This document shows, piece by piece, positions 59,684 to 64,000 of a DNA stretch of 64,000 bases. The stretch's first letter is position 1, and every line of letters starts with the position of its first letter. This stretch comes from Massilia putida (GTDB taxonomy: Bacteria; Pseudomonadota; Gammaproteobacteria; Burkholderiales; Burkholderiaceae_D): NCBI RefSeq assembly GCF_001941825.1, contig NZ_CP019038.1, forward strand, positions 5,208,001 to 5,272,000. The letters are read 5' to 3'. The translations under genes and the position numbers were made by a program. The notes beneath the pieces were generated by a model. That model made no database searches. It saw only the letters and a list, made by a program, of their open reading frames with translations, and was not told where the DNA came from.

Positions 59684-59859
59684 CGTGGCCTCATCGTCGA
59701 AAAAAAATGACAAATCCTTACAATAAACCCTCGGCACGCAAGGCTGAAATCAATAAGTTGTTCATATTGCTCGGTTATAATACTGAACTTTTGCTATTAA
59801 GTATTTCACAGTGTCTGGCAATAACACATGAGTTCGCCAGCATCCTGCAGGACATTCAA
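59684..59859 (+). promoter_or_regulatory. AT-rich promoter region of the arabinofuranose-type cluster
   Basis: This 176-bp spacer is the most AT-rich stretch in this part of the window. It holds a good -10 hexamer TATAAT at 59776-59781 (GGTTATAATAC), but no -35 at the usual distance. It separates the VOC gene from the HAD-UbiA gene. Confidence 0.45.
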
Positions 59860-61293
59860 TTGAACACGGCTCCCCTCATCGTCGACCTGGACGGTACGCT
59901 GATCCATACCGACATGCTGCACGAATCCGCGCTGCGGGTATCGCGCGACCGTCCCTTGGACGTGTTGCGCATCCCGCTATGGCTTCTGCAGGGCAAGGCC
60001 GTCCTCAAGAGCCAGCTGGCCAGCCGCAGCAGTTTCGACGCGGCGCTGCTGCCGTATAACGAATCGCTGCTGGACTGGCTCAAGGAAGAGCGCGCGGCCG
60101 GCCGTCGCATCGTGCTGTGCACCGCGTCCGACCGTTCCATCGCGCAAGCCGTGGCCGACCACCTGGGCGTGTTCGACGACGTCCTGGCCAGCGACGGCGA
60201 CGTCAACCTGGCCGGCGACCACAAGGCCGACGCGCTGGAGAAGCACTACGGCCACGGCAATTTCGACTATGTCGGCAATTCCAGCGCCGACCTGAAAGTG
60301 TGGCGGCGCGCGCGCCGCGCCATCGTCGTCAACGGCGGCCGCGGGCTCGCGCGCAAGGCGGCGGCACTGTGCAACGTCGAGCGCGAATTCCCGCCGCAGA
60401 AACGCGGCCTCGCGGCGTGGCGCAAGGTCTTGCGCGTGCATCAGTGGATGAAGAACCTGCTGCTGTTCGTGCCGCTGCTGGCCGCGCACCGCGTGATGGA
60501 CATCGACGGCTGGCTGACCCTCGCGCTGGCCTTCGTCTCGTTCAGCCTGTGCGCATCGACCGTCTACATCGCCAACGACCTGCTCGACCTGGAAAGCGAC
60601 CGCGCCCACCCGCGCAAGCGCCTGCGCCCGTTCGCGTCGGGCGCCGTGCCCGCGTGGCAGGGCGTCGTGCTGGCGCCCGTGCTGCTTACCGTCAGCCTCG
60701 CGCTGGGCGCCTTCGTCGGCGGCACGTTCCTGCCGTGGCTCCTGTTTTATTTCGTGCTGACGTGCGTGTACTCGTGGGGCTTGAAGCGCGTGATCCTCCT
60801 CGACTGCATCACGCTCGCCATGCTGTACACGCTGCGCATCACGGCCGGCGCGGCGGCGCTGTCGATGCCGCTGTCGTTCTGGCTGCTGGCGTTCTCCGTG
60901 TTCCTGTTCCTGTCGCTGGCGTTCGTGAAGCGCTATGCCGAGCTGCAGACGCAGGCGCTGTCCGGCAAGCAGAAAGTGCATGGCCGCGGCTATTACACGA
61001 GCGACGAACCGCTCGTGCTGAACCTCGGCGTCACCGCGGGCTACGCTTCGGCCGTCGTGCTGGCGTTGTACCTGAACAGCGAAGTGGTGCTGGAGCTGTA
61101 TGCGCGGCCGGAAGCCGTGTGGGGCGCCGTGCCCGTGCTGATCTTCTGGATCAGCTGGATCTGGATGCAGGCGCACCGCGGCCTCATGCACGACGACCCC
61201 CTGGTGTTCGCCGTGAAGGACCGCGCCAGCCGGCTGGCCGGCCTCGCGTTCGGCGCCGCGCTCGTCATCGGTGCGCTCGGGTGGCCATGGTAA
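59860..61293 (+). CDS. HAD hydrolase-UbiA prenyltransferase fusion (probable polyprenyl-phosphate phosphoribosyltransferase)
   Basis: The 477-residue protein starts at TTG 59860 with AGGA 8 nt upstream. Residues 1-200 form a HAD domain (IVDLDGTLIHTDM with both aspartates, VLCTASDRS, then GNSSADLKVW). Residues 205-477 are a UbiA domain with about nine helices and the motif YIANDLLDLESDRAHPRKR, KRLRPFASGAVPAW, FVKRYAELQ and FAVKDRASRL. That pattern closely recalls mycobacterial Rv3806c, which makes decaprenyl-phosphoryl-5-phosphoribose. The HAD half could remove the 5-phosphate. It overlaps the next gene by 7 bp. Confidence 0.85.
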   Translation: MNTAPLIVDLDGTLIHTDMLHESALRVSRDRPLDVLRIPLWLLQGKAVLKSQLASRSSFDAALLPYNESLLDWLKEERAAGRRIVLCTASDRSIAQAVADHLGVFDDVLASDGDVNLAGDHKADALEKHYGHGNFDYVGNSSADLKVWRRARRAIVVNGGRGLARKAAALCNVEREFPPQKRGLAAWRKVLRVHQWMKNLLLFVPLLAAHRVMDIDGWLTLALAFVSFSLCASTVYIANDLLDLESDRAHPRKRLRPFASGAVPAWQGVVLAPVLLTVSLALGAFVGGTFLPWLLFYFVLTCVYSWGLKRVILLDCITLAMLYTLRITAGAAALSMPLSFWLLAFSVFLFLSLAFVKRYAELQTQALSGKQKVHGRGYYTSDEPLVLNLGVTAGYASAVVLALYLNSEVVLELYARPEAVWGAVPVLIFWISWIWMQAHRGLMHDDPLVFAVKDRASRLAGLAFGAALVIGALGWPW

Positions 61294-62582
61294 AAGTCTC
61301 GTCGTGGGGCCGGCTCGACAGCCACGAACACGACCTGGTGCCGCTCGCCGACCGCGACCAGGCCGTGCGGGCCGTCGCGGGCGGCCGCGGTCTCCCCCAG
61401 GGCAATGCGCGCAGCTACGGCGACGTCTGTCTGAATCCGGACGGCCGCCTGTGGCGCATGACGGGGCTGGATCGCTTCATCGCCTTCGATCCCGGCACCG
61501 GCCGCCTGCGCTGCGAAGCGGGCGTGCTGCTGCGCGACATCCAGCGCATGAGCATCGTCCACGGCTGGCTGCTGCCGGTGACGCCGGGTACGCAGATGAT
61601 CACGGTCGGCGGCGCCATCGCCAACGACGTCCACGGCAAGAACCACCACGTGCTGGGTTCCTTCGGCGACCACGTGTTGCAGCTGCGCCTCGCGCGCACG
61701 GACGGCCGCGTCATCGACTGCGGCCCGGACCTCGAAGCGGGCTGGTTCGCCGCCACCGTCGGCGGCATGGGCCTGACGGGCGTGATCGTCGAGGCCGAGC
61801 TGCAGCTGCGGCGCGTGGCGGGCCCCTGGCTCGTGACGGACACGGTCCCGTACCGCAACCTCGACGAATTCTTTCAGCTGGCCGACACCTCCGAAGCCGG
61901 CTGGGAACAGACCGTGTCGTGGGTGGACTGCCTGTCCGGCATCGGCCGCGGCCTGTTCTTCCGCGCGAACCTGGCCGCCATCCCGGACCGCGGCGCGGAA
62001 TCGGGCCGCAAGCCGAAGCGCGTGCCGTTCGTGCCGCCCGTGTCGCTGGTGAACGGCCTGTCGCTGCGCGCATTCAACGAGACCTACTTCCGCGCCAACA
62101 CGCTCAAGGCCGGCTACGCCGTCGCGCACTTCGAGAAATACACCTACCCGCTGGACAACCTGCACGACTGGAACCGCATGTACGGCCCGCGCGGCTTTTA
62201 TCAGTACCAGAGCGTCGTGCCGCGCGCGGCGGGGCAGGCCGCGATCCAGGCGATGCTGGCCGCGATCAAGGCGTCGGGGCAGGGCTCGTTCCTGGCCGTG
62301 CTGAAAACCTTCGGCGACCGCACGAGCCGCGGCATGATGAGTTTTCCGCGGCCCGGCGTCACCCTGGCGCTGGACTTTCCCAACCGCGGCGCGCAAACCG
62401 CTGCCTTGTTCGAGCGGCTGGACGCCATCGTGCGCGACGCGGGCGGGCGCATCTATGCCGCCAAGGATGCGCGCATGCCGCGCGACCTGTTCGAATCGGG
62501 CTACCCGCGCCTCGCCGAATTCTTGCAATACCGCGACCCGGGCATCAGCTCGGCGATGTCGCGCCGTCTGATAGGAAGCTGA
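61287..62582 (+). CDS. DprE1-like FAD-binding oxidoreductase
   Basis: The 431-residue protein starts MVKVSSWGRLDSHEHDLV inside the end of the UbiA gene. It has a PCMH-type FAD domain (RGLPQGNARSYGDVCLNPDG, TVGGAIANDVHGKNHH, FGDHVLQLRL) and a cap domain (HFEKYTYPLDN, GFYQYQSVVP, FLAVLKTFGDR). DprE1 oxidises decaprenyl-phosphoryl-ribose at C2. The gene order with an SDR partner directly downstream matches the DprE1-DprE2 pair. The exact polyprenyl length is not known. Confidence 0.85.
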   Translation: MVKVSSWGRLDSHEHDLVPLADRDQAVRAVAGGRGLPQGNARSYGDVCLNPDGRLWRMTGLDRFIAFDPGTGRLRCEAGVLLRDIQRMSIVHGWLLPVTPGTQMITVGGAIANDVHGKNHHVLGSFGDHVLQLRLARTDGRVIDCGPDLEAGWFAATVGGMGLTGVIVEAELQLRRVAGPWLVTDTVPYRNLDEFFQLADTSEAGWEQTVSWVDCLSGIGRGLFFRANLAAIPDRGAESGRKPKRVPFVPPVSLVNGLSLRAFNETYFRANTLKAGYAVAHFEKYTYPLDNLHDWNRMYGPRGFYQYQSVVPRAAGQAAIQAMLAAIKASGQGSFLAVLKTFGDRTSRGMMSFPRPGVTLALDFPNRGAQTAALFERLDAIVRDAGGRIYAAKDARMPRDLFESGYPRLAEFLQYRDPGISSAMSRRLIGS

Positions 62583-62583
62583 T

Positions 62584-63336
62584 ATGCCGGACTCCCTCCA
62601 ACGCATCGTGATCGTCGGTGCGACCTCTTCGATCGCCGAGCATTGCGCACGCCTGTGGGCGGCCAAAGGCGGCGTCGCGTTCACGCTCGTCGGCCGCGAT
62701 GCCGCCCGCCTGGAACGCGTGGCCGCCGACCTGCACGTGCGCGGCGCCGGCTCGACCGTCACGGTACGCACCGCCGACTTTTCCGACCCGCGCGCCATCC
62801 GCGCGCTGGCCGACGCCGTCGTCGCGGAGGGCATGCCGCACCAGGTGCTGATCGCGCACGGCTCGCTGCCCGACCAGCAGCAATGCCAGCGCGACCTCGA
62901 CGCCGCCTGCGAGGCGCTGGACGTGAACGGCGTGTCGCCCGTGCTGTTCGCGGAAGCGTTCGCGGGCCACATGGAACCCGTCGGCGGCGTCATCACGATC
63001 ATCGGTTCCGTCGCGGGCGACCGCGGGCGCCGCTCGAATTATGTGTACGGCGCGGCCAAGGGCCTCGTCACGCGCTATGCGCAAGGCTTGCAGCACCGGC
63101 TGGCGGGCAGCGGCAGCGCGTTGAAAGTCGTGCTGGTCAAGCCGGGGCCGACGGCGACCCCGATGACGGCGCACCTGCCGCAGCGCGGCCTCGCGCCCGT
63201 CGAACAGGTGGCGCGCCTGATCGTGGATGGGGCCAACGCCGGCAAACCGGTGGTGTACGCGCCGGGCAAGTGGGCGCTGATCATGATGGTGATCCGCCAT
63301 CTGCCGGCCGTCGTCTTCAACAAGATGAACATTTGA
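62584..63336 (+). CDS. DprE2-like short-chain dehydrogenase
   Basis: The 250-residue SDR starts MPDSLQRIVIVGATSSIAEH, has the catalytic pair in NYVYGAAKG and ends YAPGKWALIMMVIRHLPAVV then FNKMNI. This ending is close to that of mycobacterial DprE2. DprE2 reduces the keto intermediate to give polyprenyl-phosphoryl-arabinose. It begins 1 bp after the DprE1-like stop, so the two are one unit. Assignment rests on sequence resemblance recalled from the family and on context. Confidence 0.85.
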   Translation: MPDSLQRIVIVGATSSIAEHCARLWAAKGGVAFTLVGRDAARLERVAADLHVRGAGSTVTVRTADFSDPRAIRALADAVVAEGMPHQVLIAHGSLPDQQQCQRDLDAACEALDVNGVSPVLFAEAFAGHMEPVGGVITIIGSVAGDRGRRSNYVYGAAKGLVTRYAQGLQHRLAGSGSALKVVLVKPGPTATPMTAHLPQRGLAPVEQVARLIVDGANAGKPVVYAPGKWALIMMVIRHLPAVVFNKMNI

Positions 63337-63341
63337 CGGCG

Positions 63342-64000
63342 ATGCTCGATACCCCACGTTCGCGTCTCTGGGCCTGCGCGCTGCTGTTCGTGCTGGTCGC
63401 CGTCGCGCTGGTCGCCAGCCAGCTCGGGCCGATCCGTACGCTCAACCACGAAGTCGGCGACTTCGCGGCCAACAGCCTGTTGATCCAGGACGCCAAGCGC
63501 CTGCACCTCATCTACGGAAACTACTCGCGCGTCGGCTTCAACCATCCCGGCCCCGCGATCCTGTACGTGCTGGCGTTCGGCGAATTGATCTTCCACGACT
63601 GGCTGCACGTCGTGCCGTCGCCGCTGTCGGGCCAGCTGGTCGCCGGTTGCCTGTACAACGCCGCCTGGATCGTGCTGATCGTCGCGCTCGTGCGCCGCGC
63701 CGGCGCCGCGCTGCTGCCCGCGCTCCTGTTCGGCACCGTCGCCGTGCTGATGATCGCGCGCAGCGACCATGCGATCGTCAACGGCATCTGGTTCCCGCAT
63801 TTGTACGTGCTGCCGTATGCGGCCATGCTGGTGGCGATCTCGCGTCTCGTGCACGGCCATGCGGACAGCCTCAAGGCCCTCGCCGTCGCGAGCGGTTTCC
63901 TGATCAACGGCCACGTGTCGTTCGTGCCGATGCTGGGCGTGATCCTGATCGTGGTGCTGCTTGCCAACTGGCTCGCGTCGCATGACGACCGCGCGATCCG
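63342..64000 (+). CDS. GT-C-like integral membrane protein (3' end outside window)
   Basis: The frame from ATG 63342 is open to the right edge (219 codons visible). It starts MLDTPRSRLWACALLFVLVA, with a first membrane helix, then an extracytoplasmic loop holding EVGDFAANSLLIQDAKRLHL and YSRVGFNHPGPAILYVLAFG. Further helices follow (LYNAAWIVLIVALVRR; LLPALLFGTVAVLMIA; LYVLPYAAMLVAISRLV; LGVILIVVLLANWL). A long first loop with an acidic residue is typical of lipid-linked sugar glycosyltransferases. It may use the arabinose donor made by the preceding genes; this is inference. Confidence 0.7.
   Translation, partial: MLDTPRSRLWACALLFVLVAVALVASQLGPIRTLNHEVGDFAANSLLIQDAKRLHLIYGNYSRVGFNHPGPAILYVLAFGELIFHDWLHVVPSPLSGQLVAGCLYNAAWIVLIVALVRRAGAALLPALLFGTVAVLMIARSDHAIVNGIWFPHLYVLPYAAMLVAISRLVHGHADSLKALAVASGFLINGHVSFVPMLGVILIVVLLANWLASHDDRAI

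What the first reader, a model, noticed from the sequence alone, without database searches (positions are those of the whole stretch)
59860..64000. Arabinofuranose-donor-like pathway cluster in a Gram-negative genome
A UbiA-type transferase with the sequence pattern of mycobacterial Rv3806c, a DprE1-like FAD enzyme, a DprE2-like SDR and a GT-C-like membrane protein lie in one tight operon. The SDR C terminus (YAPGKWALIMMVIRHLPAVV) and the UbiA motifs (NDLLDLESDRAHPRKR, FVKRYAEL) match the mycobacterial set better than generic members. The known use of this pathway is mycobacterial arabinan, with D-arabinofuranose on some Pseudomonas pilins as a Gram-negative case. In this organism the acceptor is unknown and could be a pilin, an O-antigen or an exopolysaccharide.
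Basis: partly seen in the sequence, partly recalled or inferred. Interest (0 to 1): 0.75.

Follow-up and report, generated by a model that had tools for sequence, protein, structure and literature searches.

The report
Arabinofuranose donor-and-transfer operon
A bacterium related to Massilia carries an eight-gene operon that very probably makes a lipid-linked form of the rare sugar D-arabinofuranose and attaches it to something on the cell surface; the pathway is already known in other bacteria, but the swappable transfer enzymes and two extra enzymes here have no assigned role.

Summary

The donor interpretation is well supported (profile ranking, solved-structure hits, catalytic residues, reciprocal test, linkage in relatives). 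It is not new in kind: Kelly et al. 2024 (PMC11127046) described such three-component pentofuranose systems, and DprE1 relatives occur in 41 of 299 genomes sampled from the phylum.

Three points are unusual. The transferase slot varies: 52% identity between species whose other operon proteins are 91-96% identical; it is duplicated here and holds proteins without a profile hit elsewhere. Epim and FADox accompany some clusters but are absent from the PA7 cluster, the type for which D-Araf is documented. The GT-Cs are unrelated to the PA7 pilin-side transferase, and the only PF00114 pilin found here has a Wzy_C ligase beside it. A surface polysaccharide is therefore a likelier acceptor than the pilin; this is unproven.

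The parts
59776..59781 (+). conserved TATAAT, candidate -10 element upstream of the operon
   Evidence: GGTTATAATACTGAAC identical in the window and in L061, L062, L063, L070 (4 of 6 relatives shown); the consensus scan did not list this site
59860..61293 (+). HAD phosphatase (PRP) fused to UbiA-type polyprenyl-phosphate phosphoribosyltransferase, 477 aa
   Evidence: NF006088 679.9 bits (cut-off 351), Pfam HAD and UbiA; 8j8j E=4e-29; start
61287..62582 (+). DprE1-like FAD oxidase, 431 aa
   Evidence: NF053785 353.8 bits (cut-off 500), next model 40.6; 5oel E=6.4e-70
62584..63336 (+). DprE2-like SDR, 250 aa
   Evidence: PRK07102 230.5 (cut-off 267) and NF053786 (DprE2) 144.9 bits (cut-off 250), next 86.9; 21gq_C E=9.7e-24; reciprocal test
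63342..64000 (+). GT-C1, 524 aa membrane protein, cut by the window end (whole gene L009:5343-6917). Beyond the window on the same strand follow GT-C2 (L009:6914-8917, 667 aa), Epim (L009:8927-9871, 314 aa), FADox (L009:9872-11161, 429 aa) and GtrA (L009:11158-11559, 133 aa); L009 coordinate = window coordinate - 57999
   Evidence: GT-C1 is 52% identical to GT-C2 residues 27-535; neither has a Pfam/NCBIfam hit; E52, D55 and HPGP (83-86) of GT-C2 invariant over 20 homologues. Epim PF01370 1.3e-15, FADox PF01593 3.3e-34 and NF005560 561 bits (cut-off 252), GtrA PF04138 7.2e-14

Best explanation
This is one eight-gene operon for making and using polyprenyl-phosphate D-arabinofuranose. [quoted passage not shown] (2) The fused HAD domain removes the 5-phosphate. 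(3) DprE1 oxidises C2 and DprE2 reduces it again, giving polyprenyl-P-D-Araf. (4) GtrA carries it across the inner membrane. (5) Two paralogous GT-C enzymes transfer Araf in the periplasm to a surface glycan, most likely a lipid-linked polysaccharide such as the O-antigen. Epim and FADox are accessory enzymes, probably acting on the lipid-linked sugar or its carrier. Steps 1-3 rest on homology to characterised enzymes with catalytic residues kept; steps 4-5, the acceptor and the role of Epim/FADox are inferred.
For: Profile ranking and curated family for HAD-UbiA; solved-structure hits for all three donor enzymes. DprE1 keeps the first histidine of HGKNHH (41 of 41 census sequences) and the lysine of AKD (40 of 41); DprE2 keeps YxxxK and its C-terminal motif; UbiA keeps NDxxDxxxDRxHPxKRxRP and KRYAEL. 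Reciprocal test for DprE2. Linkage: 8 of 8 fetched relatives with HAD-UbiA at 68-95% carry DprE1 and DprE2 beside it, against 0 of 12 fetched loci with HAD-UbiA at 43-49%. In 299 sampled genomes 41 have DprE1; in the fetched stretches 29 of the 41 also have a fused HAD-UbiA and 36 of 41 have DprE2 (the window counted in). Published precedent: ORF15 (PRP plus PPPRS fusion), DprE1/E2 homologues for Araf, GT-C with an acceptor-binding domain (PMC11127046).
Against: DprE1 and DprE2 score below NCBI's curated cut-offs for those names. Mycobacterial DprE2 is not placed with support in the tree (0.126). No acceptor is shown. Epim and FADox do not fit a plain D-Araf pathway: the PA7 cluster has neither, and the module occurs without DprE1/E2 in its 20 kb in G019.
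Confidence: 0.75

Rival explanations
1. The system arabinosylates the type IV pilin, as in P. paraeruginosa (TfpW).
For: Same donor logic as the PA7/Pa5196 pilin system (PMC12369383, passages); the genome has one PF00114 pilin.
Against: The window's GT-Cs are unrelated to the protein beside pilA in PA7 (hhalign probability 0.4%). The pilin here has a Wzy_C ligase beside it, as in G040, where neither HAD-UbiA nor FADox was found. GT-C2 has an extra C-terminal domain; ORF12 and EmbC carry glycan-binding ones (PMC11127046).
Confidence: 0.12
2. The donor is modified beyond D-Araf: Epim and FADox act on the polyprenyl-linked pentose, giving another pentofuranose.
For: The PA7 cluster, the type with documented D-Araf, lacks Epim and FADox; an extended SDR converts undP-Ribf to undP-Xylf in Citrobacter (PMC11127046 section 11); both genes are tightly spaced in the operon.
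Against: The same Epim-FADox-GtrA module stands in a different sugar locus without DprE1/E2 in G019, so it may not be specific to pentoses; one near relative with the donor genes (G045) has no FADox at E<=1e-40 and no Epim/GtrA at the locus.
Confidence: 0.12
3. Epim and FADox modify the polyprenyl carrier or serve another sugar, and are unrelated to the pentose.
For: FADox matches HpnE, phytoene-desaturase and protoporphyrinogen-oxidase models below its own PRK07233 family; that several of these act on isoprenoids is recalled. G019 context.
Against: All 7 of 7 genomes of the phylum sample with FADox at 47% or more also carry DprE1/E2 and HAD-UbiA, more than independent inheritance would give.
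Confidence: 0.3

Closest known systems
Three-component pentofuranose systems (Citrobacter youngae ORF12-15; Kelly et al. 2024, PMC11127046)
   Same: HAD-PRP plus UbiA-type PPPRS in one protein, a periplasmic GT-C with an extra domain, a separate exporter; DprE1/E2 homologues named by the authors for the Araf version.
   Different: Here the exporter candidate is GtrA rather than a MATE protein, there are two GT-Cs of a family with no Pfam/NCBIfam model, and Epim and FADox are added.
P. paraeruginosa PA7/Pa5196 D-Araf cluster (PSPA7_6245-6251) with TfpW
   Same: UbiA, DprE1 and DprE2; D-Araf on the pilin documented in Pa5196 and the genes described in PA7 and Pa5196 (PMC12369383, passages).
   Different: PA7 has UbiA without HAD plus a separate divergent-PAP2 protein, and no Epim or FADox in the locus; its slot protein shares only a C-terminal region with GT-C2 (hhalign probability 70%), and the protein beside pilA is unrelated.
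Mycobacterial DPA pathway (Rv3806c, Rv3807c, DprE1, DprE2, Rv3789, Emb/Aft)
   Same: Same chemistry expected for the first steps; GtrA may correspond to Rv3789 (recalled as GtrA-like; PMC11127046 calls it SMR).
   Different: Phosphatase fused and of another family; the residue aligned with the benzothiazinone cysteine of DprE1 is alanine (role recalled); the GT-C profile has no match among PDB chains.
GtrABC-type serotype-conversion cassettes
   Same: Conserved donor and flippase genes with a changeable transferase gene (recall and PMC11127046 Fig. 1 legend).
   Different: Pentofuranose donor made from PRPP instead of undP-hexose from a UDP-sugar.

Membership tests
PPPRS with fused HAD phosphatase (NF006088 / ORF15 type) | score above the curated cut-off over nearly full length | tested here: met
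   679.9 bits against 351, positions 8-480 of 482
PPPRS with fused HAD phosphatase (NF006088 / ORF15 type) | phosphoribosyl transfer from PRPP to polyprenyl phosphate, and dephosphorylation | not testable with these tools
   needs an enzyme assay; the DLDGT nucleophile motif and NDxxDxxxD are present in the sequence
DprE1 | nearest named relative and catalytic residues | tested here: met
   the nine best PDB hits are all DprE1; His and Lys kept
DprE1 | NCBIfam equivalog cut-off (NF053785, 500 bits) | tested here: not met
   353.8 bits
DprE2 | reciprocal preference over other SDRs of the genome, and YxxxK | tested here: met
   five distinct other SDRs compared, of ten other matches
DprE2 | NCBIfam equivalog cut-off (NF053786, 250 bits) | tested here: not met
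   144.9 bits
DprE2 | grouping with mycobacterial DprE2 in a tree | tested here: inconclusive
   support 0.126 for its placement
Three-component pentofuranose system | donor synthesis, exporter and GT-C encoded together | tested here: met
   exporter and GT-C roles by family and context only
TfpW pilin arabinosylation | GT-C related to TfpW, encoded beside the pilin gene | tested here: not met
GT136 or other named CAZy GT-C family | sequence match to the family | not tested
   no CAZy library at hand; Pfam and NCBIfam scans of the two proteins and the PDB search with the profile were negative

The most novel reading that the evidence does not exclude
Epim, FADox and GtrA form a portable module that tailors and exports polyprenyl-phosphate sugars. 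Joined to DprE1/E2 here, it turns lipid-linked D-Araf into a further pentofuranose, for example by C3 inversion to D-lyxofuranose, which Kelly et al. [quoted passage not shown] (My paper search, listed one Coxiella O-polysaccharide paper that mentions lyxofuranose; I did not open it, and recall that sugar as a branched one of other origin.) The product would then be placed on a surface glycan by exchangeable GT-Cs.
Probability: 0.1. Interest if true: 0.75.

Novelty: new variant of a known kind. Interest (0 to 1): 0.42.

Why it matters
It adds a well-defined sub-type to the periplasmic pentofuranose systems and gives two testable points. First, the transferase gene is the fast-changing, exchangeable part of an otherwise conserved operon, the pattern expected where surface variation is selected. 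Second, two conserved enzymes travel with the pathway yet are absent from the PA7-type cluster, for which D-Araf is documented, so either the sugar or the carrier may differ. It would also extend D-arabinose glycans to Massilia-like Burkholderiales.

Tried and rejected
Structure prediction of GT-C2 was switched off, so no fold comparison was made. The PDB sequence search with the GT-C alignment gave nothing at E up to 1. Pfam at E up to 1 gave DUF7024 in 6 of 20 members of the GT-C alignment and nine other families in one member each. A strict tie of Epim-FADox-GtrA to D-Araf looked true (7 of 7 genomes in the phylum sample; 8 of 8 loci in 298 genomes of the Pseudomonas family, one split over two contigs) until G019 (85% FADox) showed the module without DprE1/E2 or HAD-UbiA in its 20 kb, and without HAD-UbiA at E<=1e-30 genome-wide; DprE1 was not searched genome-wide there. 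I therefore dropped that claim. The pilin acceptor was considered and lowered. Presence of the pilin-side ligase among relatives (E<=1e-20): 5 of 9 genomes with the cluster, 12 of 72 others; this leans towards the pilin reading but is confounded by kinship and small, and I did not use it. A UbiA-family tree was not built, for want of outgroup sequences; profile ranking was used instead. In the SDR comparison one of six paralogue loci repeated another (L004 and L005 gave the same protein). The two primary papers on PA7 pilin arabinosylation were not held. Paper searches on Massilia and D-Araf or O-antigen, on Azorhizobium arabinosylation and on P. syringae pilin arabinosylation were seen as listings only and gave nothing further used here.
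Full report
Place and organism. The window is G000:C3:5208001-5272000 of a 7.5 Mb, three-contig genome. The nearest named relatives of its proteins are Telluria mixta and Massilia, so I take it as a Burkholderiales bacterium of that group (inference). Genome samples below are unnamed; that the phylum is Pseudomonadota and the family of G209 Pseudomonadaceae is my inference from named hits.

The operon. Reading past the window end gives eight genes on one strand. HAD-UbiA overlaps DprE1 by 7 bp; DprE1-DprE2 1 bp apart; DprE2-GT-C1 5 bp; GT-C1/GT-C2 overlap 4 bp; GT-C2-Epim 9 bp; Epim-FADox 0 bp; FADox/GtrA overlap 4 bp. The ATG at 59707 opens a longer frame, but relatives have in-frame stops there (6 of 6 shown), and 4 of the 6 share an identical GGTTATAATACTGAAC with the window (TATAAT at 59776-59781), so I place the start at TTG 59860. 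The consensus scan did not report this site.

Identity of the donor enzymes. HAD-UbiA matches the curated family NF006088 at 680 bits, and its UbiA half matches three decaprenyl-phosphate phosphoribosyltransferase models at 121-144 bits, against 49 for the next model and 31 for UbiA_proteo. The best solved relative is 8j8j. DprE1 and DprE2 have the mycobacterial enzymes as best solved relatives and keep the catalytic residues I could locate (residue roles recalled; alignments). Both stay under NCBI's curated cut-offs. The mycobacterial DprE2 finds the window protein at 84.5 bits and the best of five other SDRs of the same genome at 39.5. A tree leaves the mycobacterial protein unplaced (support 0.126) but groups the window protein with DprE1-linked SDRs of other genomes and keeps the same-genome paralogues apart (0.990).

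Relatives. Among 81 related genomes, 37 have HAD-UbiA at E<=1e-30. Nine of these, the window's included, match at 68-100% (G013 in two pieces). I fetched the other eight: all 8 carry DprE1 and DprE2, 7 of 8 carry Epim, FADox and GtrA, and 7 of 8 carry a GT-C of this family. Of the remaining 28 genomes I fetched 12 loci from 11 genomes; none of the 12 shows hits to DprE1, DprE2, GT-C, Epim, FADox or GtrA (blastp 1e-8, ORFs of 90 aa or more, stretches of 16-20 kb). So HAD-UbiA alone does not mark D-Araf. A named-genome scan with the GT-C alignment gave 41 loci. In 11 of the 41 all seven families are present: Massilia (six loci), Pseudomonas viridiflava and californiensis, and MAGs labelled Legionella, Burkholderiales and Proteobacteria; in the last two the GT-C gene lies divergent from, or ahead of, the donor genes. 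One (Herbaspirillum sp. SJZ107) has the donor genes and GT-C only, and 29 show the GT-C without the donor genes.

How common. In 299 genomes of the phylum, DprE1 is found at E<=1e-40 in 41 and FADox at E<=1e-60 in 8, of which 7 at 47% identity or more. All 7 of these have DprE1, DprE2 and HAD-UbiA; in one (G225) the cluster is split over two contigs. Around the 41 DprE1 genes, the window's included, the fetched stretches show a fused HAD-UbiA in 29, unfused UbiA in 4, a partial or contig-edge match in 2 and none in 6. In 298 genomes of the Pseudomonas family, FADox occurs at E<=1e-60 in 10; in 7 of them (8 loci) at 72% or more, all 8 beside DprE1/E2 and HAD-UbiA, while the other 3 are at 28-30% and were not fetched. 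In a further genus sample 23 of 149 genomes have DprE1; I fetched 20 of the 25 loci and 6 of the 20 have Epim and FADox in the stretch. Of nine module-less Pseudomonas loci listed, five show a 322-336 aa membrane protein after DprE2 (the one scanned is PF03706), followed by another GT-C-like protein.

The exchangeable transferase slot. Between the window and Massilia sp. Root335 the other operon proteins are 91-96% identical, but the single GT-C there is 52% (to GT-C2) or 58% (to GT-C1); M. phosphatilytica has the Root335 type (87%); M. kyonggiensis has both window-type genes (85-86% each); M. rhizosphaerae keeps GT-C2 (84%) and only a 40-residue remnant of GT-C1. In G039, G303, G530, G480, G588 and G660 the slot holds other long ORFs without a hit to the GT-C profile, and in G209 and G643 nothing. 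The slot of G118 was not resolved by my ORF filter, and in G232 the order differs. G480 has two complete clusters with different slot proteins.

Comparison with the documented D-Araf cluster. G490 has one contig of 6,588,339 bases, the published length of PA7 (PMC2809737, abstract start in the listing), and DprE1 at 6.46 Mb. Its cluster has a PAP2-like protein, UbiA without HAD, DprE1, DprE2 and a 559-aa membrane protein, with no Epim or FADox in the locus and no FADox hit reported for this genome (G490 lies in the handle range that call drew). The 641-aa protein beside pilA, which by the layout in PMC12369383 is TfpW, has no detectable relation to the window's GT-Cs. Hence Epim and FADox seem not to be needed for D-Araf, and the pilin parallel is weak.

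Epim and FADox. Epim is an extended SDR and FADox an amine-oxidase-type flavoprotein. Both are more conserved than the donor enzymes between the window and two named Pseudomonas (76-77% against 43-47%), so modules may have been inherited apart. In two loci a methyltransferase sits between FADox and GtrA (L110, L161). In G019 the three genes occur without DprE1/E2 or HAD-UbiA, next to other nucleotide-sugar-type genes (one of these scanned). I infer a role on lipid-linked sugars or their carrier, without knowing the reaction.

Acceptor. The genome has one PF00114 pilin at E<=0.001, with a Wzy_C ligase beside it. The two GT-Cs are the only members of their family found here (E<=0.01). GT-C2 has an additional C-terminal region of about 130 residues absent from GT-C1; by analogy with ORF12 and EmbC (PMC11127046) it may bind the acceptor glycan. 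I rate a surface polysaccharide first, pilin second; neither is shown.

Verdict. Real, correctly read in its main point, and a new variant of a described kind of system.

Noticed in passing
window 61287-62582: The residue aligned with the benzothiazinone-reactive cysteine of mycobacterial DprE1 (role recalled) is alanine; in 41 census DprE1 sequences it is A in 34, T in 6, S in 1, never C.
   Followed up: yes
L189:10968-13801: Epim-FADox-GtrA module without DprE1/E2 or HAD-UbiA in the stretch (G019), beside other sugar-nucleotide-type genes, a second GtrA-like gene and a 728-aa membrane protein.
   Followed up: partly
L127:7715-12061 (HAD-UbiA and DprE1 without DprE2 also in L126, L128-L130): HAD-UbiA and DprE1 without a DprE2 hit in the fetched stretch; in L127 an extended-SDR epimerase lies nearby and might take its place.
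   Followed up: partly
L152 and L190: One genome (G480) has two complete clusters about 12 kb apart with different slot proteins.
   Followed up: no
L057, L060: HAD-UbiA without DprE1/E2 next to a large membrane protein, a GT2-like and a small GtrA-like protein (named by eye): possibly a ribofuranose version.
   Followed up: no
L050, L054: HAD-UbiA standing alone among apparent housekeeping genes (by eye).
   Followed up: no
L019 / L048 (G013): HAD-UbiA is split into two overlapping frames, by sequence error or real damage.
   Followed up: no
L080-L095, L097, L098, L100: Relatives of GT-C2 at 26-32% in records I take as Actinomycetota; none of the 19 loci has a DprE1 or HAD-UbiA hit in the stretch held.
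   Followed up: no
L112:7504-9504: The only PF00114 pilin gene found in the genome is followed by a Wzy_C-type ligase; the same pair is in G009, G048 and G040.
   Followed up: partly
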